Source of the DNA: Bacteroidales bacterium
GTDB lineage: Bacteria > Bacteroidota > Bacteroidia > Bacteroidales > Muribaculaceae
Direction of reading: 5' to 3'
Length of the DNA: 64,000 nucleotides
Assembly: GCA_910575545.1 (NCBI GenBank)
Contig: CAJTFH010000004.1
Location: 1 to 64,000, forward strand
The translations under genes were made by a program, and so were the position numbers. The notes beneath the pieces are model-generated. The model made no database searches. It was not told where the DNA came from and saw nothing but the letters and a program-made list of their open reading frames with translations. Every line of letters starts with the position of its first letter. Position 1 is the stretch's first letter. Below are positions 43,437 through 58,715 of the stretch, in pieces.

Positions 43437-44483
43437 TTAATACATCGGGGTGAACGGCTCGGAGCGTTTCAGATGCTTGTTGGCGCATCCTACGATGTTT
43501 GTCTCTTTGGAGGTGTCGAGTTTCAGAACAGGGGCGCCATTGTAGAGGTCGAGTGCCGACAGATCGATATAATAGCATCCGGGATTTGTCACAATGTCGA
43601 AATAGTATCTGCGGTCGCGCAGGTTGGCGTATGAGCGCCATTGTGTCGATGACAGATTCGGCTCCCCGGCAATTTCGTAGGTATATGGCACACTCACATC
43701 GTCGATTATGCTGCGGGTTATGCTGACTCCGAGATCGGCATCCGCCACCGGCTTTACGTGGTGGGCAAAGTAGTTGGCACGCACGCAACGGCTGGGGCTG
43801 CTCACTGTGCCTGGAAGCATGTTTTTGCCACCGATGCCGTTCCAATAATCTATTATGGCACGCATCGCCGGCCATTCCGGATCGTTGGTCATTGCGCGGT
43901 AGTCGCCCATATCGTAGATTTTTACCTGGCCGTGGTCAAACTCAAGAATCGCCGATTGACCTGTAGCGTCTGTGATGCCCCAATGAAGAGCCGACACGGT
44001 TCCGCCGTCGAATGTGGCTCCGCCGATAGTGAAATCGTGCTTCTGCAGAAGGTCGACTACCTGTTGTGTTGTGGCGTTCATGTCGAGCAGCCAGCCGACA
44101 AACATGGCAAGCGACATGGGTGGGCGTCCCTTGGTGTCGTCGTTGCTATATACTGTGCCTTTACAGAAAAGTCCGTTCACAACAAGCCCCATTTCATTCA
44201 TCCCCTCTGTTATGCCTCCGTCGTAGCCAACGGCATAGACGGCGCCGTATTTAGATGTCCATTCAACGGCTCCGGGCTGGTCAGAACCCCTTTTTGCCAT
44301 ACCGCGCGGATAGACATACAGGTTGGTGGGTATAGGGGTTTTCCAATCGAGCGAGCGCCCGACAACCATGAGTGAGTCCAATCCTTTATAGAGTACCCTT
44401 GAACAGGCTTCAGATTCAGCCGGAGCCGATAAGGCGGCTGCAAACACCAATGCTGATGCAGCAACTTTAATAATATTCCTCAT
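43437..44483 (-). CDS. Periplasmic choloylglycine hydrolase-family acylase
   Basis: An Ntn hydrolase cleaving linear amide bonds (bile-salt hydrolase / penicillin V acylase family). 348 residues with a signal peptide whose cleavage before Cys27 (SEA-CSRVLY) would expose the N-terminal nucleophile. Family residues are present: R43 and D46 in GRSLDWK, N96 in GMNEMGLVV, N200 in MTNDPEWP, and R232/R235 in SSPSRCVR. The segment DWKTPIPTNLYVYPRGM looks more like the Gram-negative penicillin V acylase-like branch than the classical Bacteroides bile-salt hydrolase, but the substrate cannot be fixed from sequence. A possible -7 (TATATTTC) lies at 44495-44502 on the minus strand. Confidence 0.85.
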   Translation of the reverse strand: MRNIIKVAASALVFAAALSAPAESEACSRVLYKGLDSLMVVGRSLDWKTPIPTNLYVYPRGMAKRGSDQPGAVEWTSKYGAVYAVGYDGGITEGMNEMGLVVNGLFCKGTVYSNDDTKGRPPMSLAMFVGWLLDMNATTQQVVDLLQKHDFTIGGATFDGGTVSALHWGITDATGQSAILEFDHGQVKIYDMGDYRAMTNDPEWPAMRAIIDYWNGIGGKNMLPGTVSSPSRCVRANYFAHHVKPVADADLGVSITRSIIDDVSVPYTYEIAGEPNLSSTQWRSYANLRDRRYYFDIVTNPGCYYIDLSALDLYNGAPVLKLDTSKETNIVGCANKHLKRSEPFTPMY

Positions 44484-47991: not shown

Positions 47992-48081
47992 CATATCTTT
48001 CACCAAAAAGCCTTGAATGCCGACCTTCATTATATTCTCTTACAAAAAAACATCTCCTGACGGGAAAAATGATGCATTGCA

Positions 48082-49161
48082 TCAATAGGAATGGAGGCCG
48101 CTGTTCAACCCGAACCACGTGACCAGCACAACAGCAAAAGCAACCACCCAATAGACACATAACCACCTCTGACCAATCCGCTTAATCCTGATATGGAGAG
48201 GCAACAGATAAACCACCATCGTAAGCAAAGCCATACACTCTTTGGGGTCCCAACTCCAATAACGCCCCCACGCCATGGCCGCCCATACAGACCCTACCAT
48301 AATACCTGCCGCAAGACAAAACACCCCCACCCGGAGCATCCTCACAGGATAATAGCATGATGCAGGCCGGAAAAAACAGACAATCCCGCCCACAGCCAAA
48401 ATGGCGAAGCATGCATAGGCAACCGTTATCAGCACCACATGCACAAACAGTAACGGAGTGACAAGCACCGGTGGCAACACATCGCGGAACCCGACAGCAA
48501 CAGCAGCTGCCAAGGCCGCAAGCCCTCCGGCCAACGAGGCTTTTGACATGCGCCTGTCAACAATGCCGGCAAACAGCAGCGCAACAGCCGTCAACACAAG
48601 TGTATCGCCTCCACATATGGCCGGGAAACACCCCAGCATACACCATCGCCAACATATGAAACCTACCGAGCCGGCAAGCAGCAGCAGCAAAACCGGCGAG
48701 GGGCAGGGATTCCGCATACGGATAATTGGCAGCACCATCGGCAACATACCTGAAACCAAAAGGATATACGACAAATAAACCAATGCCATGCCAACCGGGT
48801 CATGCGCAACCAGCAAAGTCATTCCCCGCCCATCATTATCTTCCGCACCTTTCATCAGCCTGTAGCTGCCGATTCTGACCACACGGTTAGGAGCCAGCGT
48901 ATAAACTGTCGACGAACAACAATCCGCCACCACAATGGACCGGCTGTCGGCATACCCCACATAAAACGGCAACGGGCGGTTATGACAACCCCCTACTTTC
49001 CACATCGCAGCATTGCCGCCATCCTGCCTAAGGCATATATGGCCATACTCCCCTGCAAAGAAACTCACCAAAGCCCCGGCCACAAGCACAACCACGCCTA
49101 TATGTATCAGCGCAAGCCGACGACACCGCAACCGCTTCAACCAAGTTAACGAAACGTTCAT
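48082..49161 (-). CDS. CcsA-type cytochrome c biogenesis (heme handling) protein
   Basis: 359 residues. The CcsA heme-handling signature WGRYWSWDPKECMALLT lies near residue 305, with about eight membrane helices and histidines in FVHVVLITV and LPLHIRIK placed as in heme-handling proteins. A short N-terminal ResB-like piece (one helix, then LRQDGG... to about 100) precedes it. It should deliver heme for attachment to apocytochrome c in the envelope. The ATG at 49161 overlaps the TGA of the upstream gene by 4 bases, so it is translationally coupled. A small stem with a T-run on the minus strand (48070-48084) overlaps the stop. In other Bacteroidales, ccsA goes with the nitrite reductase genes nrfHA; none are here. 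Confidence 0.8.
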   Translation of the reverse strand: MNVSLTWLKRLRCRRLALIHIGVVVLVAGALVSFFAGEYGHICLRQDGGNAAMWKVGGCHNRPLPFYVGYADSRSIVVADCCSSTVYTLAPNRVVRIGSYRLMKGAEDNDGRGMTLLVAHDPVGMALVYLSYILLVSGMLPMVLPIIRMRNPCPSPVLLLLLAGSVGFICWRWCMLGCFPAICGGDTLVLTAVALLFAGIVDRRMSKASLAGGLAALAAAVAVGFRDVLPPVLVTPLLFVHVVLITVAYACFAILAVGGIVCFFRPASCYYPVRMLRVGVFCLAAGIMVGSVWAAMAWGRYWSWDPKECMALLTMVVYLLPLHIRIKRIGQRWLCVYWVVAFAVVLVTWFGLNSGLHSY

Positions 49162-50288
49162 AGACCGCCCATACACTCCATCTCCACCAGCCACCCCGGA
49201 CGGCACACGGCCGCCATCACAACCACATATGGTAATCCGGGAAATTCATGGGATATAATAGCATCCACCACCGCCGCATCTGCCGTATCACGCAAATACA
49301 CCACCCCCTGCAACAAATCAGACCGTCTGCACCCGGCTTCTGCAAGCAACGCATCTATGTTCTCAATCATACGTCTTGTCTGGCCTACGACATCACCGCC
49401 ACAGACAATCGCCCCCCGGTTATCGATACTCGCCGTCCCGGAGATAAATACCAGGCTACGCCCGGGGAAATCCAGTCTGACACCACGTTCAAACGCAACC
49501 CCGTAATCCGACGTCCGATTGAGATTCTCCGGGGCATAGAGATACCTGACCGCAGGCCAGACGCAACCAGAGGCGGCATAGGCATCCATCGACACAACAA
49601 CACCGCCATTTTCCATCGCCCCGGCAATGCCTGTGCTGGCTATATAATGGGTGTCAGACACAAGCCCCACCTCATCGAAAACATTATTACGGGCGAGCAC
49701 CATCCCTTTGTAATTCACATCTATATCCCTGACAAAAAACCATGTGCGATGACACGAATCAGCAAAATCCAGCCCCACGCGCTCCAATGCTCCTATATAC
49801 GACCTTAGCACACGGTCTGTTGCCTTCAAAGAATCAGTCTCGCCAGCCACGCAACAGGAGCCACACCAATATTCGACCTGGCCATTGCTGTCATCAACCT
49901 CAAACAGGCCGTCTTTCTCCGAAACGACAACTCCACTGCGGAAATATACCCACAGCACCACCTTCCCCCCCATAAGAGGGGGTTGCCCTACCACCGACAT
50001 GGCGCAGCGGCTGTCATCAGGCAGCAACATAGCCTGGTTGGCAATATCACTCAGAAACCAGCGTTTCATAACGGGTTTCATTCCATCCAGGTCACGGCTA
50101 AGCGCATTGTAAGCATCAACCACATCGCCAAGCTGTTCTTCAAAACCGGCATAATGAACACCGTCATAAGTTGATACAGGTCGGATATAGGCATGGATTT
50201 CATCGCCACCCCCGTTTTCAGGTGTGAAACGGGCAATATCAACCTGACACTTCCCTTCACCGGTCTCATATCTGTAATATTCTGTCAT
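49158..50288 (-). CDS. RidA/chorismatase-like double-domain protein
   Basis: 376 residues. The C-terminal 120 residues are a RidA (YjgF) domain: FISGTASID, DVVGQTRRMIENIDALLAEAGC, LLQGVVYLRD, and a final VCRPGWLVEMECM in which the Arg aligns with the ligand-binding Arg of RidA. The N-terminal part (YAGFEEQLGDVVDAYNAL, VVGQPPL) looks like a second, diverged copy. The length and two-module layout recall chorismatases of the FkbO/Hyg5 group, but deaminase or binding roles are equally possible. No signal peptide. It starts 14 bases after the regulator gene and overlaps the CcsA gene. Confidence 0.65.
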   Translation of the reverse strand: MTEYYRYETGEGKCQVDIARFTPENGGGDEIHAYIRPVSTYDGVHYAGFEEQLGDVVDAYNALSRDLDGMKPVMKRWFLSDIANQAMLLPDDSRCAMSVVGQPPLMGGKVVLWVYFRSGVVVSEKDGLFEVDDSNGQVEYWCGSCCVAGETDSLKATDRVLRSYIGALERVGLDFADSCHRTWFFVRDIDVNYKGMVLARNNVFDEVGLVSDTHYIASTGIAGAMENGGVVVSMDAYAASGCVWPAVRYLYAPENLNRTSDYGVAFERGVRLDFPGRSLVFISGTASIDNRGAIVCGGDVVGQTRRMIENIDALLAEAGCRRSDLLQGVVYLRDTADAAVVDAIISHEFPGLPYVVVMAAVCRPGWLVEMECMGGL

Positions 50289-50302
50289 TAGCTCAATTGG
50301 AA

Positions 50303-53300
50303 TTATTCTGCAGATTCAACACTATCATACTTGCCTGTCAGGCTATCCATATACTCTCCCGGATTCATACCGAATTCCTTTTTAAAGCACAGGCTGAAAT
50401 ATTTAGGGTCGTTGAACCCCACGGCATAAGCCAGTTCAGAAATCCTTATACCATGTTTTTCTTTCATAATCCGGCAAGCCGACTTAAGGCGGATATCACG
50501 CACAAAAGCCGTGTAAGACAGGCCGGTCAGCAGTTTCAACCTACGGAACAACGTCGATTTCGAGATTCCCATTTCATCTATAAACATGGCCTGGCTGAAA
50601 TCGGGATCGCCCATATGGGCCAGCACACAATCAGTCGCCTTCTTTAGAAATTTCTCATCAATACTCGAAAAATCCAATCCCTCGGAATCAACAGGTTCCA
50701 CTGACCTATGAGCAAGGGCTGCAATAGCATCTCCAGCCCCACTCAGACCCTGATTGACACCTTCTGCTTTGCAGAATTCAATCGCCTGTTGCAGCAGACT
50801 CGTCAGACGGCCTATGCATTCATTCATATTCCTGTGGAGGTCACGCAATTCCGGTGCCGCAGCTTTCATTTCATCCGCCACCGCAGTTATTATTGACAGC
50901 GGATTAAGCCATTCATGCGTTATGTTAGTGAAAAAACGGAGTTTGACACGGTTCAACTCCTCAGCCTGGGCCAGTTCCAATTCCCGGATACGCAACGTGT
51001 TGCGTTGCCTCACCCGACGGCGCCAGACAGAGATTATGACTGCCATAACCCCAAAAAACAGAATGGCATAAATCAAATAAGCCCACCATGTAGCCCATAA
51101 AGGTGGATTTATGACAATGCTGAGGGTTCTTTCTCCTCCAGTCCAGTGGCCATTGACATCGGTGGCCTTCACCCGGAAAAGATATTCTCCAGCAGGCAGA
51201 TTATTATAATAGGCGAAACGTCGCGAATAGTCGGCATTATGCCATTCATTGTCGAAACCGTCGAGTTTATATGCATAACGGTGGAGAAGAGGGTCATTGC
51301 CGAAATCAAACACGGCAAACTCAATGCTGAAATTATTCCGGGAATGGTCAAGGGTGAGTTTATCAGCAGCAGCAGGCGATTTGAGGGAGATACCACGCCG
51401 AACCTCATCCGAGAGCTTATGCCATGAATTTCCGAAAATCTTAACATCCGTTATAACCACAGGCAGGTGTCTGACCTCAACCTGCTCCCCGCTGCCGTCG
51501 ATGACATTCATTCCATGCGGCCCTCCGAAAAACAATCTCCCCGCACTATCGGTCGCCACCGCACCAAGGTTATAGATGTTATCCTGCGCCCCATCGCCCC
51601 TTGTATAAAGCCTATACGACACATTCCCCGAGTCGGCAGGTGCATGAATCCGCAGCAGACCCATGTTTGAGCCTACCCATAATGCCCCTTGGGAATCCGA
51701 TAAGATACCAGCCACTATGTCGCCGGGCAGATTCCACTTCATATGCACCGGTTCGAAGCGGTCGGCTCTGTAGTCATAAAGACTCAGCCCCATTCCGTCG
51801 CTTCCCATCCACAAACGTCCTGTCGCATCATTATAGACCGTGGTAACATTAAATGTGTTGGCATTTCCCTTATTAGGGTCATAATGGTTCACGCTGTATG
51901 ACCCGGCGCTGGTTCCGCTTCCGTCAATACGCAATATTCCCATATTACGGGTGGCCACCCATATGCTGCCGTTTGACCCTTCCGCAAAATCAACCACCTG
52001 TATCCCCTTAAGGTCATCGGTGTCGAACAGGAATGAGCTCCCGTCAGGCAATCTGACACTTAAACCCGGCTGGCATCCAAGCCATAGGCGGCCGCGACTG
52101 TCTTCGAGCATCGCAACAACCCGGTCGCCCGGCAGCCAGCCGCAATTCGACACCGTGAAATGATCAACAGAGCCATTGCTGCGGTTGATTACATAGAGCC
52201 CCCCGTCATAAGTGCCTACCAGGATTCTCCCGTCAGATGTTTCCTCAAGGGAATACACCGTGAACGGCACTGCCGACGAAGCCGCAAACCGGTAGCGGGA
52301 ATCGAGTCTGTCAACCTCTCCGGTCGACGGATTATAAGTGACCAACCCATCGTTAGAGCCTATACTTATCCACATCAGGCCATCCGACGACACAAGCATA
52401 CAACGCACATTATTGCTCCCGGTACGCAATTTGACCGCCTCAAGGCTCTCAAGCATAACCCCGGAAGGGCGTTTTGAAATATTAAAAGCCCCACTGCCGA
52501 GTGTGCTAACCCACATCAGACCCTGCCGGTCTGTCATCAGAGAAGTCACCTCCTGAAACTGATGGCCGGTTCCGAGCGAGCATATGTTTGTGAACTCTCC
52601 GCTTTGATAATCCAACACACTTACCCCCTTGCGTGTGCCGACCCACAGCGCACCGGAAAAGGCATCCTCTGATATGGAATAGATTATGTCGTCTAAAATT
52701 GATTCATCCTTGCCGGGAATGTGCCGGAAATTATCCCATGTTGTTTTCTCAGGCTCATAGGGGTTGTTCAACATGAAAAGGCCGTAACCCCAGCTGCCGA
52801 CCCATATACGGTGGCGGCTGTCCTCAAACACGACATGAGCTGATTTCATTGCATTCATATGCGGATAGGAATACACTATCCCACCTTTGTCGATACGATA
52901 CAATCCCTCATTCCATGTCCCCACCCAGACATTGCCACGGGAATCCTCAAACAAAGATTTGACGGTGGTCTGAGGCATCACTCCTCCCGATCTTTCATAA
53001 GTGAAAAGCGACACCGAATCTTCCTCGGCAAAATATTCAAACAACCCTTGGTCGCTCCCTATCAGCAACCGCCCGTCGCTGACACATAGCATCGTGGATA
53101 TGGCGTTGCCGCAAAATTCATCATGAATGAAGTTGTTAAGTTCACCTGTCTGGAGGTCATACATATCCAGCCCGGCAGTAGTGCCGATCCACAAGCGCCT
53201 ACAATCATCCTCACACAGATATTTGATATTATTACTGCTGAGTATGTTTCCGTTGCGGATGTTCGACCGGAAAACCTCCATGCCGAAACCGTCATACCTC

Positions 53301-53497
53301 GCAAGTCCGTTGCGCGTTGCCAGCCAGATATATCCATAGCTGTCCTGGATAACCTGCTGCACATCATCACACGGAAGGCCATCGGTCGTGGTCACGAAAC
53401 GGGAACGGTGGCTCTTGTCTGATATTTCGGTTATTTCGGCATGCGACACCCCCATGGCAACAGCCATGAGAATGAAACAGGCAGCCCGCCTCAGCAT
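50303..53497 (-). CDS. Propeller-type transmembrane AraC regulator lacking kinase and receiver domains
   Basis: 1064 residues from the Met at 53497, which gives a signal peptide. Residues 30-670 are two-component-regulator propeller repeats (DSYGYIWLATRNGLARYD, DSRGNVWVGTWNEGLYR, DSRGRLWLGCQPGLS), then a Y_Y_Y domain, a membrane helix (about 800-825) and a HisKA-like helix pair with FFTNITHEWLNPLSII (about 857-872). A 70-residue linker then leads to an AraC DNA-binding domain (about 946-1052; FIDEMGISKSTLFRRLK, ISELAYAVGFNDPKYFSLCFKKEF). There are no HATPase N/G boxes and no phospho-Asp receiver, unlike classical hybrid two-component systems. It likely senses a periplasmic ligand and controls this operon. 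Confidence 0.85.
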   Translation of the reverse strand: MLRRAACFILMAVAMGVSHAEITEISDKSHRSRFVTTTDGLPCDDVQQVIQDSYGYIWLATRNGLARYDGFGMEVFRSNIRNGNILSSNNIKYLCEDDCRRLWIGTTAGLDMYDLQTGELNNFIHDEFCGNAISTMLCVSDGRLLIGSDQGLFEYFAEEDSVSLFTYERSGGVMPQTTVKSLFEDSRGNVWVGTWNEGLYRIDKGGIVYSYPHMNAMKSAHVVFEDSRHRIWVGSWGYGLFMLNNPYEPEKTTWDNFRHIPGKDESILDDIIYSISEDAFSGALWVGTRKGVSVLDYQSGEFTNICSLGTGHQFQEVTSLMTDRQGLMWVSTLGSGAFNISKRPSGVMLESLEAVKLRTGSNNVRCMLVSSDGLMWISIGSNDGLVTYNPSTGEVDRLDSRYRFAASSAVPFTVYSLEETSDGRILVGTYDGGLYVINRSNGSVDHFTVSNCGWLPGDRVVAMLEDSRGRLWLGCQPGLSVRLPDGSSFLFDTDDLKGIQVVDFAEGSNGSIWVATRNMGILRIDGSGTSAGSYSVNHYDPNKGNANTFNVTTVYNDATGRLWMGSDGMGLSLYDYRADRFEPVHMKWNLPGDIVAGILSDSQGALWVGSNMGLLRIHAPADSGNVSYRLYTRGDGAQDNIYNLGAVATDSAGRLFFGGPHGMNVIDGSGEQVEVRHLPVVITDVKIFGNSWHKLSDEVRRGISLKSPAAADKLTLDHSRNNFSIEFAVFDFGNDPLLHRYAYKLDGFDNEWHNADYSRRFAYYNNLPAGEYLFRVKATDVNGHWTGGERTLSIVINPPLWATWWAYLIYAILFFGVMAVIISVWRRRVRQRNTLRIRELELAQAEELNRVKLRFFTNITHEWLNPLSIITAVADEMKAAAPELRDLHRNMNECIGRLTSLLQQAIEFCKAEGVNQGLSGAGDAIAALAHRSVEPVDSEGLDFSSIDEKFLKKATDCVLAHMGDPDFSQAMFIDEMGISKSTLFRRLKLLTGLSYTAFVRDIRLKSACRIMKEKHGIRISELAYAVGFNDPKYFSLCFKKEFGMNPGEYMDSLTGKYDSVESAE

Positions 53498-53501
53498 ATT
53501 C

Positions 53502-55013
53502 TTATTGCTGCATGACAACATTTACAGGGTCTTTTTCAAGAGCTTCTATGAATTCTGACCTGGAGAAATCCACAGGTCTGACCATAAACTCGGGAATATT
53601 ATATGATTTGAACAGGCAGCCGTCGGCATCCGGACTCGCCTGCGGAAGCACAAACGGTTTGCTGAAACGGCCGTCAGCTCCCATATGGGTCAGGTAGAGC
53701 CGGGTATATGAGCCGTCATCCCTGCGCGAGCTGAAAATAACCCATTTTCCCGACGACGACCAAGAATGATAGCTTTCCACATCATCGCTGTTGATTTCAT
53801 CAAGCGGCCGTGTCTCCCCCGTTGCAATGTCGAGCATATAGAGGTCGGCATCACGGTGCCAGATGTGGAATGTGCCGAACCCACCTTGGGTAAACATCAG
53901 AAAACGGCCGTCGGGAGAAGGTCTCGGTAGGGTTACGCTTTTCCCCAAGGCAGATGCCCGGTAAACAGTATCAGCCTCCTCGAACCTACGGGTCCGCGGG
54001 TCAAACTTTTTTCTGTAAAGGTCATATTTGAAATCCTTGTAGTTGAGCGCCTGATACAAAGCCATCTCCTTTTCGGTCATTTCAGGCACATGGGCCGACA
54101 CATACCATAGGCTCAGGCCGTCTGGATGCCAGCATGGGAATGTTTCAAGCTCTGCCGGATTGTTGGCAATAAAACATAGCCTGTCAGTATCAAGATCATA
54201 CAACACAAGGTCTGAAGCGGCATCCTGAACCTCTACCTTATTCAAATCGCGGGTATGGAAGGTCTGCGACGTGGTGTTGTTGGAATATGCTATAAGCGGC
54301 TCTGTAGGATGCCATGAAGGATACACACCCGCCGACACAGTTTCTGGAGTCTTCAGGTTGATTTTCTTCAGTGACCCTCCATGGCCTACCAGAGTGCCGC
54401 CATAACCCACTCGCACATGCATCTGCATATTCCCGTCGCGGTTATAGTCCTGATAGGAATGGCAGTTTATGCATTGACCCTCCTTTTCCGTGCTCATGGC
54501 CTGGTTATTAAAAATCTCATGCTCGTCGAAATTCTCGAGATTGCGCTGGCAGATGGCCATGTTTTCGAATCCGATATACCCCGGCTCGATAAGGCGGTAG
54601 GATATATACGGGTCTATGCTGTCGGCCACGGCATTGGCCACAGTGGTATAACGGGTCCAATGCCCACCCTTGCAAGTGTATATATCAGCATATACCGTAT
54701 CGGCATCCGCAAGCAGACGGTGCCATCTGTCAACCGGAATATCCAGCGCCTGCCCGCACACAACGAAGCCGTCCGGATCCGCCGATGTGCGGAAGCAGGT
54801 CAGGAAATCATCGGCATCCTCATTTATGCGGCAGGTCAGGGGTGCGATATTGCGGGGAATGACCAGGCCGGCATAATCGGGAGAAATCGACGCCATCCTG
54901 CCTGCAAGTGAATAATCGGAAGGCAACGCATGGCTGCATGAGACAACCGCAACAGCCATGGCCACTGTTATGGCCGCGCCTATCTGTTTCTTAATATACA
55001 TCCTTTTTAGCAT
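53502..55013 (-). CDS. Beta-propeller (PD40/TolB-like) lipoprotein with a CxxCH heme motif
   Basis: 503 residues. The signal ends in VVSC (Cys26), predicting a lipoprotein. Residues 30-170 are a novel N-terminal region, residue 181 begins CINCH (codons 54459-54473), the canonical c-type heme attachment motif, and residues 225-480 hold propeller repeats (YPSWHPTEPLIAYSNN, FPCWHPDGLSLWYVS, RPSPDGRFLMFTQGG, SWSSSGKWVIFSSRRDDG). A heme-bearing propeller suggests an envelope redox or sensing role. It begins 1 base after the DUF6057-like gene stops and ends 4 bases before the regulator. Met5 is an alternative start. Confidence 0.75.
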   Translation of the reverse strand: MLKRMYIKKQIGAAITVAMAVAVVSCSHALPSDYSLAGRMASISPDYAGLVIPRNIAPLTCRINEDADDFLTCFRTSADPDGFVVCGQALDIPVDRWHRLLADADTVYADIYTCKGGHWTRYTTVANAVADSIDPYISYRLIEPGYIGFENMAICQRNLENFDEHEIFNNQAMSTEKEGQCINCHSYQDYNRDGNMQMHVRVGYGGTLVGHGGSLKKINLKTPETVSAGVYPSWHPTEPLIAYSNNTTSQTFHTRDLNKVEVQDAASDLVLYDLDTDRLCFIANNPAELETFPCWHPDGLSLWYVSAHVPEMTEKEMALYQALNYKDFKYDLYRKKFDPRTRRFEEADTVYRASALGKSVTLPRPSPDGRFLMFTQGGFGTFHIWHRDADLYMLDIATGETRPLDEINSDDVESYHSWSSSGKWVIFSSRRDDGSYTRLYLTHMGADGRFSKPFVLPQASPDADGCLFKSYNIPEFMVRPVDFSRSEFIEALEKDPVNVVMQQ

Positions 55014-55014
55014 A

Positions 55015-56865
55015 TCACGAGGTCTTCAATCCTTTCACAAAGAAGTAATAATACCAGAACGTATCGCCGAATTCAGGCTTGAATATCTCAAGGTTAGCCT
55101 CATCAGACAAGCCGGAATGCCGCTGCGCCATCTGCATGAACCGCGAAAAACGCTGCTCCACACGGCGCTCGATATTGAACTGGCGCCAGTCTATACTACC
55201 CTCCAAGGCGGAATACAATATGGCAGCCTCCTGATAATGAACCGGCAGCCTCTGATGATGGCGCGCATAGAGCATAAAACGGGGCCAGAATTCAGAAATA
55301 TCCTTGAGTATGAGGTTATACTGCAGCGACAGTTCCACCAGTTCGGGCGGGCCGCCGGCAAGCTGCGCAGTCAGCCGGGTAACATAGGTCTCAAGAAGCG
55401 AACCGTCACCGGCCAGCATGTTATCGTAGGCCGACAGATGCCTTATCCGGCTTAATTCACCATCCTGTTCAATCAGTCCGGGGTTATCGGCATATTCCAT
55501 ATACCGGCTTGCCATATCGCTATAGAAAAGCGTCTTCTGCAATGGTCTGAGATATTTGCGTGCGAGGGCATATTCCCCATTGAGCAGCGCACATATGGCC
55601 ATGGTTTTAAGATATTCGGCCTTTGGGCCATATTCCACCATATCTTCCATGCACCATCGGTAAGCATCGTTGACGCGTCCCAGCCGCATCAATATGTCAC
55701 GGCTGATGAACTGCCGCATGACAAATTCCGGACGTGTCGATTCATGTGGTTCATCCGCAAAACAGAAAGTAAACAGGCTGTCGCCGGCCCAACCGAGACG
55801 GTTAAGGGCAAGATGGGTCATCATACCCACAACACGCGAAGGTCGCCCCTGCTGACTGCGTGCACTTTCCACCGCCCCACGCCAGTTACCGGCTGAAATA
55901 GCCCGCCCCATATCCATCGCAACCTTAAAGTTCCCATCTTTATATTGTAGTGCCCGGACTGTCCCGATTCCGAGCAGCATGACCACACCTGACGCCATAA
56001 ACATTCTCCTTGTCCCCCCTGGCCGTGCGCCCATTCTGTAATAGGCAACCACCCCTGTGGCAAACAGCAACGCCACAACCGCATATGGAATCAACAGGCT
56101 GGTCTCATGGCTAAATAAACGGGGCAGACCGCTGGTGTAGATATTCTCCGCCATCAGCCTGTTCCCAGGCACGAAGCGGAAATATGCCACCGGGATAAAT
56201 GCCATCAGTGCCATTCCCAGAGCCACAAGCCACCAATTGCGGCGCTTGGCTATCTCAGAAACCACACAAAGCCCCACCCCCAACAACGCATAGAAACCCA
56301 GACAAGGATATCCGGCAATAGCAGCCACACAAAGCACTGCCATGCACCAAAAAACAGATGAAACAGAACGGTAGCCCCACCATACGCCCACAGCCGAGGC
56401 AAACCCCAGCACTCCGGCAAAAGCGAAACCGGGAAGTTTGAGAGTGAAAATAAGGTCGCCCAACACAACCACAGAAAGCAGCACACACGACGAAGGCAAC
56501 GACGCCATAGGGAACATCTCACCCGGCAGGCGGAATGCCTTATAAACCATAACCCATAGCCCCAACAGCATGGTAATGAAAAACGTGGCCCCCAGCCATG
56601 GATAAAAATAGAACTGCGAGAAGAAAAGCGCCACCCACGAAAGCAACCCGCCGGGAAGTTTCATGCAGTTCCAAAAATAACCGCTCGTCGGCACAAACAG
56701 AGACTGTTCCGAGATGCGCCACAGATAGCCCCCGTTCATTACGGGAAGAATCCAATAAGCGAATATTGTGAAAACAGCCATGGCAATGGCAAGCCACCAC
56801 CATGGCAGATTTCGAGTAAGAGCGGATTCGGCCCGGTTTGGCCGTATCTTTGTATTTCTGTGCAT
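55015..56865 (-). CDS. DUF6057-like polytopic membrane protein with a helical C-terminal domain
   Basis: 616 residues from the Met at 56865; upstream in-frame codons overlap the promoter. About nine to ten membrane helices lie in residues 25-330, the first loop carrying NGGYLWRISEQSLFVPTSGYF. The C-terminal 290 residues look like TPR-type helical pairs (NDAYRWCMEDMVEYGPKAEYLKTMAICALLNGEYALARKYL split over two helices). I recall this as a Bacteroidetes family of unknown function. First gene of the five-gene operon. Confidence 0.65.
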   Translation of the reverse strand: MHRNTKIRPNRAESALTRNLPWWWLAIAMAVFTIFAYWILPVMNGGYLWRISEQSLFVPTSGYFWNCMKLPGGLLSWVALFFSQFYFYPWLGATFFITMLLGLWVMVYKAFRLPGEMFPMASLPSSCVLLSVVVLGDLIFTLKLPGFAFAGVLGFASAVGVWWGYRSVSSVFWCMAVLCVAAIAGYPCLGFYALLGVGLCVVSEIAKRRNWWLVALGMALMAFIPVAYFRFVPGNRLMAENIYTSGLPRLFSHETSLLIPYAVVALLFATGVVAYYRMGARPGGTRRMFMASGVVMLLGIGTVRALQYKDGNFKVAMDMGRAISAGNWRGAVESARSQQGRPSRVVGMMTHLALNRLGWAGDSLFTFCFADEPHESTRPEFVMRQFISRDILMRLGRVNDAYRWCMEDMVEYGPKAEYLKTMAICALLNGEYALARKYLRPLQKTLFYSDMASRYMEYADNPGLIEQDGELSRIRHLSAYDNMLAGDGSLLETYVTRLTAQLAGGPPELVELSLQYNLILKDISEFWPRFMLYARHHQRLPVHYQEAAILYSALEGSIDWRQFNIERRVEQRFSRFMQMAQRHSGLSDEANLEIFKPEFGDTFWYYYFFVKGLKTS

Positions 56866-56891
56866 ATTATATCGCTGATGGTATATAGCCA

Positions 56892-56899
56892 CAAATTTA
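56892..56899 (-). promoter_or_regulatory. Promoter -7 element of the cytochrome/regulator operon (TAAATTTG)
   Basis: An exact TAnnTTTG on the minus strand, 27 bases before the chosen DUF6057-like start and just downstream of the GH43-like gene. Leader about 20 bases. Confidence 0.5.
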
Positions 56900-56927: not shown

Positions 56928-58715
56928 CTATCGCACAATAAATTTTCGTGTCAGACTGAAGGCCGAAGCGCCATTGCCGGAGCTGAAATAACAGATATAT
57001 ACCCCCTCCGGCAAAGAGGCCGGCAGACCCACAACAGTCTCACCTGCCTCCATAGCAGTAGTGACAGAGAACAGAACGCGGCCGCCACACGGCTCCACAA
57101 CACGCAATTCGGCAACATCAAGCGCCAAAGGCGAGCTGACAACCAGATGCCCCGCATCATAACTGACCTTCACTGAAGATTCCGCTATCGTGGCATCTGA
57201 CAATCCGGCGCTCTCATAAGCCTGCTGGAGGGCAATCTGCTTCAGATTATCCTCACGGTAGCCTTTCGAAAACATATCGGCAGCTTTATAATCATGAACG
57301 AAACTGTCGAAATACAGGCCGAAACGTTGCGACTCCGTTGAATTGTCAGCGGCCATGAACACAGCGCTGTTGGCCAGCTGCGAAGAACCCGACACCGTGA
57401 GCACTTTGCGGCTCTGGCAACTCTGGATCTTGTAACAACCGTCGTCCAAAAGCTCAAGACGCCACTCCTGCGATATATCATCTCTCTTCTGGGCCAGTTT
57501 CAAAGACCCGAAAGTAGACTCGAGATACAGCCCTGAAGCGACATCTGCCAAATGCCACACATAAGGATTCGATGTGGCTTCAAAACGGAAAACGACATTG
57601 GTTGCATCATTGTCATCATCAATGAAATAACCGTTCCCTTTGCTCGAGACCCAGCGGTCTGAATACTTGTCGAGCAGACGAACTTCAACACCGTCGTCAA
57701 CCATGTCGATGCGCTTGAAGCGGGTTGCGTTGTCGAAAACACTCAGATCCCAGCTGTCATGCCATTTCACAGTAGGAAAACCTGAACGGACACTCAACGG
57801 CAACCACACATATTCCGATTTCCCTCCGACATCATTCTTGTTCCAGCGGTCGCCCATATATATGTATGCCCCTTCTCGGTCGGCTACTTTAAGTATGTAG
57901 GTGCTCTGGCTCCTGTAGGTTGTAGCCGCGCCATTGTCTATGGCGAAATTCGGCCCCTCCTCCCATTCGCCGAGTATGTCGGTCGATGATGCGCTGTGGC
58001 CCGGATTGGGATCCCACCCGGAGCACTCCGAGAAGAGGGCGAAATAGGTGTCGCCAACACGCACCACCGCAGGCGCCTCAAGCCGGCGTCCTTTTAGAAT
58101 CTGGGTCTCGGTCACAGGGTTCTGCTCTGTGGTCAGGAAATCGTCTGAGAGCAGCGCTATGTTTATGTCGGTATTCATCCCTGTGGCACAGATATGATAC
58201 CCTTTGCCGTCTGGCCCTACAACGACTGTCTGGTCGCGGCTGTCGTGGCCATTGGGTCTGAACGTGCTTTCAAACTGGTAATCGCCGTCGACTTTATCGG
58301 CCGACGCCACACACACGCGCGCCTCGCCATAGCCCAGGCCATTCTCCCAGTGGATATACATCACCCATTTCCCCGTTTTCTCATTATAAACAACTTTCGG
58401 ACGTTCAAGAATGCATTTCCCTGTTTCCGGATCAAACGCCTGCGAGGCCTTGAACACAAGCCCATGACGAGTCCAGTCATACAGATTGGTCGAAGTGTAA
58501 CAGCTTATGCCATTGCTGGTGCTTCCGGTGCGGTCTTCACCGAACCAGTAATACGTGCCCCCGTCATATACCACACAGCATCCATGGGCATTGATATGGG
58601 AGCCCTTGACATCGCTCCAGGGTTCTCCCGGAGTGAAACTGCTGCGCGCGCCGGCATTCAAGGCAACCGAGCCGGCCAGGATTGAACCCAGCAAGAATGG
58701 AGATAATCTCTTCAT
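56928..58715 (-). CDS. Secreted GH43-like glycosidase with a ricin-type domain
   Basis: 595 residues. The signal peptide is residues 1-23. A five-bladed propeller (about 30-330) opens with INAHGCCVVYDGGTYYWFGEDR and has RPKVVYNEKTGKWVMYIHWE, LEAPAVVRVGDTYFALFSECSGW and YRSQSTYILKV, resembling the exo-beta-1,3-galactanase-like GH43 subgroup. Residues 345-460 look like a beta-trefoil (ricin-type) carbohydrate-binding domain, and the last 75 residues form a sorting-type domain. The substrate is unproved; a galactan or arabinogalactan side chain is a guess from the subgroup. Preceded by the terminator at 58743-58790. Confidence 0.75.
   Translation of the reverse strand: MKRLSPFLLGSILAGSVALNAGARSSFTPGEPWSDVKGSHINAHGCCVVYDGGTYYWFGEDRTGSTSNGISCYTSTNLYDWTRHGLVFKASQAFDPETGKCILERPKVVYNEKTGKWVMYIHWENGLGYGEARVCVASADKVDGDYQFESTFRPNGHDSRDQTVVVGPDGKGYHICATGMNTDINIALLSDDFLTTEQNPVTETQILKGRRLEAPAVVRVGDTYFALFSECSGWDPNPGHSASSTDILGEWEEGPNFAIDNGAATTYRSQSTYILKVADREGAYIYMGDRWNKNDVGGKSEYVWLPLSVRSGFPTVKWHDSWDLSVFDNATRFKRIDMVDDGVEVRLLDKYSDRWVSSKGNGYFIDDDNDATNVVFRFEATSNPYVWHLADVASGLYLESTFGSLKLAQKRDDISQEWRLELLDDGCYKIQSCQSRKVLTVSGSSQLANSAVFMAADNSTESQRFGLYFDSFVHDYKAADMFSKGYREDNLKQIALQQAYESAGLSDATIAESSVKVSYDAGHLVVSSPLALDVAELRVVEPCGGRVLFSVTTAMEAGETVVGLPASLPEGVYICYFSSGNGASAFSLTRKFIVR

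What the first reader, a model, noticed from the sequence alone, without database searches (positions are those of the whole stretch)
48082..56899. Five-gene operon coupling a CxxCH propeller lipoprotein, a CcsA-type heme protein, a double RidA protein and a kinase-less transmembrane regulator
The five minus-strand genes are separated by 1, 4, 14 and -4 bases and share one visible promoter (56892-56899). Heme-handling CcsA proteins normally sit beside a cytochrome such as NrfHA; here the only CxxCH protein nearby is the propeller lipoprotein, making it the likely client. A regulator in the same operon and a ten-helix protein of unknown function suggest a complete envelope sensing or redox module. 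I know of no described system with this set; that novelty is inference.
Basis: partly seen in the sequence, partly recalled or inferred. Interest (0 to 1): 0.75.

Follow-up and report, generated by a model that had tools for sequence, protein, structure and literature searches.

The report
Heme propeller lipoprotein with dedicated maturase
In a gut-type Bacteroidales bacterium, a sugar-degradation gene cluster ends in five genes that probably make an unusual heme-carrying propeller protein together with the small enzyme that attaches its heme, and a chorismatase-like enzyme whose link to such heme proteins is unexplained.

Summary
The five genes, their spacing and their coordinates are confirmed. 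The client inference holds up well: the CxxCH propeller is probably a c-type cytochrome. CxNCH is in 87 of 87 relatives examined. All 28 propeller-bearing genomes of 198 in the window's family carry CcsA, against 63 of 170 others. The window's genome has one CcsA hit and no NrfA, NrfH or DHOR. Against: 9 of 50 further genomes chosen for carrying the propeller show no CcsA. The set is not a fixed five-gene system: 105 of 116 other propellers have DUF6057 immediately 5', but only five lie in loci with RidA2 and two with CcsA. The promoter box is weak, and the genes form the tail of a glycan locus. CcsA is a minimal fused CcsB-CcsA. The regulator is a hybrid two-component sensor without kinase and receiver domains. 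The 'double RidA' protein is chorismatase-like, keeps the Hyg5 catalytic Glu position and co-occurs with the propeller in 27 of 28 genomes. That link is the unexpected part. Heme attachment and every activity are untested.

The parts
55015..56865 (-). DUF6057 protein, 616 aa: about 8-10 membrane helices in residues 26-302, then a roughly 310-aa soluble C-terminal part
   Evidence: PF19529 307 bits, cut-off 29.8; hydropathy on A3; immediately 5' of the propeller in 105 of 116 other propeller genes
53502..55013 (-). CxNCH beta-propeller lipoprotein, 503 aa, proposed c-type cytochrome
54459..54473 (-). codons of CINCH, residues 181-185, proposed covalent heme c site
   Evidence: sequence; CxNCH in 87 of 87 propellers of 80 loci against CxxCH in 5 of 592 other ORFs of at least 250 aa
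53766..53768 (-). codon of His416, candidate distal heme ligand
   Evidence: His in 61 of 64; lost with C181, C184, H185 and H386 in the one member (L026) without CxxCH
53856..53858 (-). codon of His386, candidate distal heme ligand
   Evidence: His in 62 of 64; co-lost in L026
50303..53497 (-). hybrid two-component sensor without HATPase and receiver: Reg_prop sensor, Y_Y_Y, membrane helix, HisKA with FFTNITHE, AraC-type HTH_18
   Evidence: alignment with full-length HTCS L175:6061-10227
49158..50288 (-). chorismatase-like protein of two RidA-type domains ('RidA2')
   Evidence: PF01042 54 bits; TIGR04444 37.8 bits (below its 325 cut-off) over residues 152-372; profile hits Hyg5 5ag3 and FkbO 4bps
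48082..49161 (-). minimal fused CcsB-CcsA (359 aa): short ResB/CcsB-like half plus CcsA half with WWD motif and conserved histidines
   Evidence: PF01578 76 bits; PDB 25vk_A E 1.9e-22 in two stretches, 7s9y_A 4.4e-13; alignment
48070..48084 (-). terminator-like hairpin after CcsA
   Evidence: consensus scan; 23 such sites found in the region against a mean of 13.6 in shuffles
56892..56899 (-). TAAATTTG, possible Bacteroidales -7 box (the consensus is recalled)
   Evidence: sequence; TAnnTTTG occurs 17 times on this strand of the window
56928..58715 (-). GH43 with ricin-B lectin domain, directly upstream, perhaps co-transcribed
   Evidence: GH43 upstream of DUF6057-propeller also in L076, L085, L087, L093, L098 and L181
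58800..61835 (-). 1011-aa protein of the same glycan locus (DUF642 over its cut-off; CBM_4_9 25.7 bits, just below its cut-off of 25.9)
   Evidence: the locus continues beyond the window with a full-length HTCS, two BNR_2/CBM9 proteins, SusD and an apparent SusC

Best explanation
The five genes are the tail of a glycan-utilisation locus that makes an envelope redox protein and its maturation enzyme. The propeller lipoprotein is a single-heme c-type cytochrome: CcsA, a minimal fused CcsB-CcsA, exports heme and attaches it to CINCH at the start of a TolB-like propeller (inferred). DUF6057 is its membrane partner (shown as a conserved gene pair; role inferred). The regulator senses a periplasmic ligand with its Reg_prop/Y_Y_Y part and, lacking kinase and receiver, signals directly to its AraC-type DNA-binding domain (inferred from the missing domains). 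RidA2 is a cytoplasmic chorismatase-like enzyme that supplies or clears a chorismate-derived small molecule needed for making or using these cytochromes (co-occurrence shown, chemistry inferred). Confidence is about 0.75 for heme c on the propeller via CcsA, about 0.35 for RidA2 being a working chorismate enzyme, and about 0.5 for the kinase-less regulator being functional.
For: CxNCH: 87 of 87 propellers of 80 loci; C181, C184 and H185 in 63 of 64 of A2. Family, 198 genomes: 28 of 28 propeller genomes have CcsA against 63 of 170 others (p 2.5e-11); as a yardstick, DHOR, an annotated di-haem family, has CcsA in 65 of 66 genomes and NrfA in 8 of 8. 27 of 28 propeller genomes have RidA2 against 12 of 170 (p 7e-23); 39 of 39 RidA2 genomes have CcsA; RidA2 and CcsA lie within 4 kb in 28 of 39; 7 propeller genomes including the window's have CcsA but neither DHOR nor NrfA. 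Order, 149 genomes: 17 of 17 propeller genomes have CcsA against 88 of 132 (p 0.002; without two weak propeller matches 15 of 15 against 90 of 134, p 0.004). Recurrent linkage: G157 RidA2, DUF6057, propeller (opposite strand) and a short CcsA within 5.3 kb (L245); G300 propeller-DUF6057-GH3-SusD-SusC-short CcsA-RidA2 on one strand (L246) (GH3, SusC and SusD by eye); G108 RidA2-DUF6057-propeller (L174), G030 DUF6057-HTCS-RidA2 (L175); G029 DUF6057-propeller followed by a closer FkbO/Hyg5-type protein (L336). CcsA keeps the CcsB-half His, P-His1, WWD, second TM His and C-terminal GLHSY aligned to 25vk_A; roles of these features as in PMC10663686 (abstract and passages).
Against: No heme measurement. 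CINCHSY is modelled as a beta-strand in the heme-free model, unlike the helical start usual for CxxCH (recalled). Nine of 50 propeller-bearing genomes from genome contigs show no CcsA although their propellers keep CxNCH; they are smaller (median 2.3 against 3.0 Mb, p 0.003), which fits incomplete genomes but does not prove it. CcsA occurs within the fetched flanks of only 2 of 116 other propeller genes. The counts are not corrected for shared ancestry. Eleven of the 18 family genomes with CcsA but no DHOR or NrfA have no propeller either, so clients outside these families exist or were missed. Other c-type families were not searched in the window's genome. In the order sample only 8 of 15 strict propeller genomes have RidA2. 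RidA2 scores far below the chorismatase cut-off of TIGR04444.
Confidence: 0.6

Rival explanations
1. CxNCH is not a heme site. It is a metal or disulfide site of the propeller, and CcsA and RidA2 serve some other cytochrome of the genome; co-occurrence reflects shared lineages and gene-rich genomes.
For: The motif is modelled as a strand. Nine of 50 propeller-bearing genomes have no CcsA hit. RidA2 and CcsBA are also found in DHOR/imelysin-type operons. Eleven family genomes have CcsA with no DHOR, NrfA or propeller, so unlisted clients exist or were missed. N183 is also invariant, more than a heme motif needs.
Against: The window's genome has no NrfA, NrfH or DHOR match and its only CcsA hit lies in this gene set. 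Seven of 28 propeller genomes in the family have CcsA with neither NrfA nor DHOR, four of them with a stand-alone RidA2-CcsBA pair (L326, L327, L330, L331). C, C and H of the motif were lost together in L026.
Confidence: 0.2
2. The five genes are an accidental line-up: DUF6057-propeller is one unit, and the regulator, RidA2 and CcsA merely landed downstream in this lineage.
For: None of the loci of the 116 other propeller genes shows this five-gene order (only two of those loci hold CcsA at all). None of the 13 other genomes of the genus in the sample has a propeller match. Propeller-linked RidA2s are not shown to form one clade (weakly resolved).
Against: Members meet again in different arrangements in G157, G300, G108, G030 and, with a closer FkbO/Hyg5-type relative, G029. 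Genome-level co-occurrence is strong. The genes are close or overlapping and a terminator-like site follows the last one.
Confidence: 0.12
3. RidA2 is an ordinary Rid-family imine deaminase or house-cleaning protein, not a chorismate enzyme, and its link to cytochromes is indirect.
For: The best single structure hit is RidA-type (2dyy 8.9e-16); all 40 members match PF01042 and none PF21168 at E <= 0.01; the TIGR04444 cut-off of 325 is not reached (37.8 bits for the window protein).
Against: 40 of 40 members match TIGR04444 at E <= 0.001; Hyg5 and FkbO align over about 255 and 194 profile positions with E369 on Glu334 and C362 on C327 (numbering counted back from the printed chain end); Glu334 is reported as the essential acid of Hyg5 (PMC7170507, passages). 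Clearer FkbO/Hyg5-type relatives that pass the PF21168 cut-off stand beside CxxCH propellers in G029 and G105 and beside a propeller-like (by eye) two-CxxCH protein in G088.
Confidence: 0.35

Closest known systems
System II cytochrome c synthase CcsBA (7s9y/7s9z, H. hepaticus by recall; 25vk_A 'CcsA', 828 aa)
   Same: WWD motif WGRYWSWDPKE, P-His1, C-terminal P-His2 (GLHSY) and further histidines align
   Different: 359 aa in all, with a much shortened CcsB/ResB half; five relatives aligned (four beside RidA2, one) are 525-687 aa, and the short copies in G157 and G300 are 313 and 315 aa
TolB (Tol-Pal propeller)
   Different: a lipoprotein with CxNCH, paired with DUF6057; TIGR02800 35 bits against a cut-off of 343
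Hydrazine synthase alpha subunit (5c2v_A)
   Different: 10% identity; PF18582 is not among the ten families that A2 members match; its hemes sit in domains absent here (recalled)
Chorismatases Hyg5 (5ag3, 5a3k; named so by recall, 'putative pteridine-dependent dioxygenase' in the PDB) and FkbO (4bps)
   Same: two RidA-like domains (recalled); catalytic Glu position and neighbouring Cys-Arg conserved
   Different: below the family cut-off; genomic setting is cytochrome maturation and glycan loci
Hybrid two-component system regulators of glycan loci (HTCS)
   Same: Reg_prop, Y_Y_Y, HisKA and AraC-type HTH; one full-length HTCS is in the same locus
   Different: no HATPase_c and no receiver: the stretch between DHp and HTH is missing
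Imelysin-DUF1111/DHOR iron-uptake operons (PMC3143127, passages seen)
   Same: RidA2 and CcsBA stand beside DHOR- and imelysin-type genes in L166 and L167; RidA2 without CcsBA in L170 and L171 (imelysin by Pfam in L166 only)
   Different: here no DHOR in the genome and none of these genes in the locus; the proposed client is the propeller

Membership tests
c-type cytochrome | conserved CxxCH in an exported protein | tested here: met
   CxNCH 87 of 87; lipobox Cys26 invariant 64 of 64
c-type cytochrome | cytochrome c maturation system in the genome | tested here: met
   window genome 1 of 1; family 28 of 28; order 17 of 17. No hit in 9 of 50 genomes
c-type cytochrome | covalently bound heme | not testable with these tools
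   needs protein chemistry
c-type cytochrome | CxxCH at the start of a helix (usual form, recalled) | tested here: inconclusive
   modelled as strand 181-187 in a heme-free model
System II CcsBA | WWD motif and P-His1/P-His2 in the CcsA half | tested here: met
   alignment with 25vk_A and with eight relatives
System II CcsBA | CcsB (ResB) half with TM His | tested here: met
   residues 34-155 of the GTG-start ORF align to 25vk_A 80-219 including the His (that stretch 7.3e-05); much shortened. TIGR03144 83 bits is below its cut-off of 187.6
NrfHA-linked CcsA | nrfH/nrfA in the genome | tested here: not met
   no match to PF03264 or PF02335
FkbO/Hyg5 chorismatase | score over the TIGR04444 cut-off (325 bits) | tested here: not met
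   37.8 bits for the window protein; 40 of 40 members match at E <= 0.001
FkbO/Hyg5 chorismatase | catalytic Glu of Hyg5 (E334) | tested here: met
   E369, an invariant column of 40 sequences, aligned; role of Glu334 from PMC7170507
FkbO/Hyg5 chorismatase | turns chorismate into hydroxybenzoate or a dihydroxy-cyclohexadiene carboxylate | not testable with these tools
   enzyme assay needed
HTCS | Reg_prop/Y_Y_Y sensor, membrane helix, HisKA and AraC-type HTH | tested here: met
   HisKA 27.5 bits against a cut-off of 26.9; membrane helix by eye
HTCS | HATPase_c kinase and receiver domains | tested here: not met
   absent; present in L175 and in the locus's other HTCS; gap visible
TolB | score over the TIGR02800 cut-off | tested here: not met
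   35.2 bits against 343; the fold is TolB-like
DUF6057 | PF19529 over the gathering score | tested here: met
   307 bits against 29.8; 51 of 51 members of A3 match
Polysaccharide utilisation locus | SusC/SusD pair with glycan enzymes on the same strand | tested here: met
   SusD by Pfam, SusC by eye only, GH43, two BNR_2/CBM9 proteins

The most novel reading that the evidence does not exclude
Gut-type Bacteroidales carry heme-c beta-propellers that work with a dedicated chorismatase-like enzyme. The enzyme turns chorismate into an aromatic compound that the heme proteins (TolB-like propeller with DUF6057, YVTN-like propeller with two CxxCH, and one type of DHOR operon) use as electron mediator, substrate or metal ligand, or that cytochrome maturation itself needs. 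This would be an unrecognised envelope redox chemistry, here switched on from within a glycan locus by a kinase-less one-component HTCS. Hint: taking DHOR matches over 170 bits as one type (a line drawn after seeing the scores), 19 of 19 such genomes in the family have RidA2, and 17 of the 20 remaining RidA2 genomes have the propeller.
Probability: 0.3. Interest if true: 0.85.

Novelty: new variant of a known kind. Interest (0 to 1): 0.64.

Why it matters
It would also give System II a very small fused synthase with one evident client, a convenient minimal case for studying heme attachment. The repeated pairing of chorismatase-like proteins with CcsBA and heme propellers is unexpected and directly testable: one enzyme assay and one gene deletion would say whether chorismate chemistry and cytochrome c are linked. 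The kinase-less HTCS beside full-length relatives offers a natural test of one-component signalling in this regulator class.

Tried and rejected
Considered and rejected or left open: (1) NrfHA as hidden client: no NrfA, NrfH or DHOR match in the genome. (2) One fixed five-gene operon: not seen in the loci of 116 other propeller genes. (3) DUF6057 as a GT-C glycosyltransferase: the only membrane hit was EmbC at E 0.11 and no other Pfam family matched more than one of its 51 members; left open, since its structure could not be predicted. (4) Propeller as a member of the hydrazine synthase alpha family: fold match only, PF18582 not among the families matched. (5) Co-occurrence as an artefact of one sample: repeated in a second, largely separate sample (family; order; at least G000, G025 and G139 are in both); ancestry was not corrected for. 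(6) The chorismatase-like gene of G029 as the start of an aryl polyene cluster: it is followed by SusC- and SusD-like genes (by eye).

Rows dropped before counts: in the order sample the RidA2 set used holds 10 of the 14 genomes; G014, G022, G059 and G137 (partial, E 2e-26 or weaker) were left out. The strict propeller set drops G072 and G131 (partial, E 1e-20 and 6e-24). and one search count only propeller ORFs of at least 380 aa.

Led nowhere: paper searches for DUF6057, for PUL with cytochrome c and CcsA, and for beta-propeller with CXXCH, Bacteroid and lipoprotein gave 0 papers; chorismatase with cytochrome c gave 5 papers, none on this by its listing; Muribaculaceae with cytochrome c and heme gave 35, ten listed, none relevant by title; hydrazine synthase alpha gave 0. 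The RidA2 tree is poorly resolved around the window protein. Coordinates of the model were not available, so distances between CINCH, H386 and H416 could not be measured.
Full report
What is there. Their families are DUF6057 (307 bits), a PD40 propeller lipoprotein with CINCH at residues 181-185, a Reg_prop/Y_Y_Y/HisKA/HTH_18 regulator, a Ribonuc_L-PSP protein and Cytochrom_C_asm. A terminator-like hairpin follows the last gene, and none was found between the upstream GH43 gene and DUF6057. The TAAATTTG box is real but such boxes occur 17 times on this strand of the window. Upstream, on the same strand, are GH43, a 1011-aa DUF642 protein with a near-cut-off carbohydrate-binding match and, running beyond the window, a 1186-aa FIVAR/ricin-B protein, a full-length HTCS, two BNR_2/CBM9 proteins, a DUF5017 protein, SusD and an apparent SusC (SusC by eye). 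The five genes are therefore the end of a glycan-utilisation locus. L181 (G023) has GH43, DUF6057 and propeller in the same order, with genes resembling the 1011-aa protein before them by eye.

The conserved core is DUF6057 plus propeller. In those and 27 further loci, 105 of 116 propeller genes have DUF6057 immediately 5' on the same strand, 6 have it on the other side and 5 have neither; 10 lie near the ends of a stretch. RidA2 is in the same fetched locus for 5 of the 116 propellers and CcsA for 2. The exact five-gene order was not seen again. Of 68 flanking genes scanned (of 84 printed), glycan enzymes are the commonest but not universal: GH2 in 9, ricin-B in 6, GH43 in 5.

Co-occurrence. 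In the window's family (198 genomes) the propeller was found in 28, CcsA in 91, RidA2 in 39, DHOR in 66 and NrfA in 8. All 28 propeller genomes have CcsA, against 63 of 170 others; 27 of 28 (not G314) have RidA2, against 12 of 170; all 39 RidA2 genomes have CcsA; as a yardstick 65 of 66 DHOR genomes and 8 of 8 NrfA genomes have CcsA. Eighteen genomes have CcsA but neither DHOR nor NrfA; seven of them, the window's included, have the propeller and eleven do not. In the order sample (149 genomes) 17 of 17 propeller genomes have CcsA, against 88 of 132, and 8 of 15 strict propeller genomes have full-length RidA2, against 2 of 134 others (dropped rows are listed under Tried and rejected). Against this, 41 of 50 genomes reached through 50 of the 80 loci have CcsA and 9 do not; the nine are smaller on median (2.3 against 3.0 Mb, p 0.003) and keep CxNCH. 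Relatedness of the genomes was not corrected for. Within the family the propeller is spread over 8 of 30 genera.

Recurrent gene linkage. G157 has RidA2, DUF6057, propeller (on the other strand) and a 313-aa CcsA within 5.3 kb. G300 has propeller, DUF6057, a GH3-like gene, SusD- and SusC-like genes, a 315-aa CcsA and RidA2 on one strand (names of unlabelled genes by eye). G108 has RidA2-DUF6057-propeller, and G030 has GH43, a 662-aa gene, DUF6057, a full-length HTCS and RidA2. In G187, G308, G317 and G331, propeller genomes without DHOR or NrfA, RidA2 and CcsBA form a stand-alone pair (L326, L327, L330, L331). Elsewhere RidA2 and CcsBA belong to imelysin-DHOR operons (L166, L167), a type linked to iron uptake (PMC3143127, passages). 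In the RidA2 tree the window protein has no well-supported close partner and the propeller-linked copies do not group together, but the backbone is weak.

CcsA. The window protein aligns to CcsBA structures: 25vk_A in both halves (E 1.9e-22, two stretches) and 7s9y_A in the CcsA half. It keeps a His in the CcsB-like half, P-His1, the WWD motif, the second TM His and the terminal GLHSY; the roles of these features are described in PMC10663686 (abstract and passages). At 359 aa it is far shorter than five relatives of 525-687 aa from loci with RidA2 in the alignment.

RidA2. Its 40-member profile finds Hyg5 (5ag3, E 1e-14) and FkbO (6.7e-10) besides single-domain RidA proteins, the best of which scores slightly better. 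E369 and C362 align with Hyg5 E334 and C327; E334 is reported as the essential acid (PMC7170507, passages; a role of C327 is recalled only). All 40 members match TIGR04444, in the window protein at 37.8 bits against a cut-off of 325, and none matches PF21168. More typical FkbO/Hyg5-type proteins, which do pass the PF21168 cut-off, stand directly after DUF6057-propeller in G029 (L336), beside a propeller-like protein with two CxxCH in G088 (L338; propeller by eye), and, in G105, in a run with CcsBA, an HZS_alpha-domain protein and a lactonase/YVTN-like propeller with two CxxCH (L184). The pairing of chorismatase-like proteins with CxxCH propellers or System II thus recurs in several kinds of locus. 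A further FkbO/Hyg5-type gene in G137 (L337) has no such neighbour on its short contig. No paper on this pairing was found in the listings.

Regulator. Compared with the full-length HTCS of G030 and G078, the window protein lacks the stretch from HATPase_c through the receiver, keeps FFTNITHE and the AraC-type domain, and aligns on both sides of the gap. Whether it works as a one-component regulator or is a decaying copy is open; its reading frame is intact over 1064 aa.

Verdict. The main inference, propeller as CcsA client, is well supported but indirect. The module is a recurrent association in loose arrangement, not a fixed operon. The new lead is the chorismatase-like partner.

Noticed in passing
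L184:3466-18999 (G105): Run of minus-strand genes with a MauG-type di-haem peroxidase, CcsBA (811 aa), a 1331-aa protein with an HZS_alpha middle domain (127.8 bits) plus FGE-sulfatase and NPCBM domains, a FkbO/Hyg5-like protein and a lactonase/YVTN-like propeller with two CxxCH: a hydrazine-synthase-alpha-like heme system in a genome of the same order.
   Followed up: partly
L338:4195-7868 (G088): FkbO/Hyg5-like gene between a 596-aa propeller-like protein (by eye) with two CxxCH and a lipoprotein resembling the 253-aa one of L184.
   Followed up: partly
L263:4288-17612 (G314): Tandem array of four CxNCH propellers, each preceded by a DUF6057-type membrane gene (one of these not recognised); G322 has several matches close together on one contig too.
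   Followed up: no
43437-44483: Choloylglycine-hydrolase-family gene near the locus; a gene with a similar start (by eye) stands directly before RidA2-DUF6057 in L245:5075-6124.
   Followed up: no
L026 (G108:C21:65082-66368): A propeller paralogue that lost CxxCH together with H386 and H416, a natural heme-less control.
   Followed up: partly
L170:4058-7736 (G105): Two RidA2 copies flanking a regulator-like gene (by eye) beside a DHOR-containing operon.
   Followed up: no
L324:6196-10311 (own genome, beyond the window): A second, full-length HTCS in the same glycan locus, so the locus carries one complete and one kinase-less regulator.
   Followed up: partly
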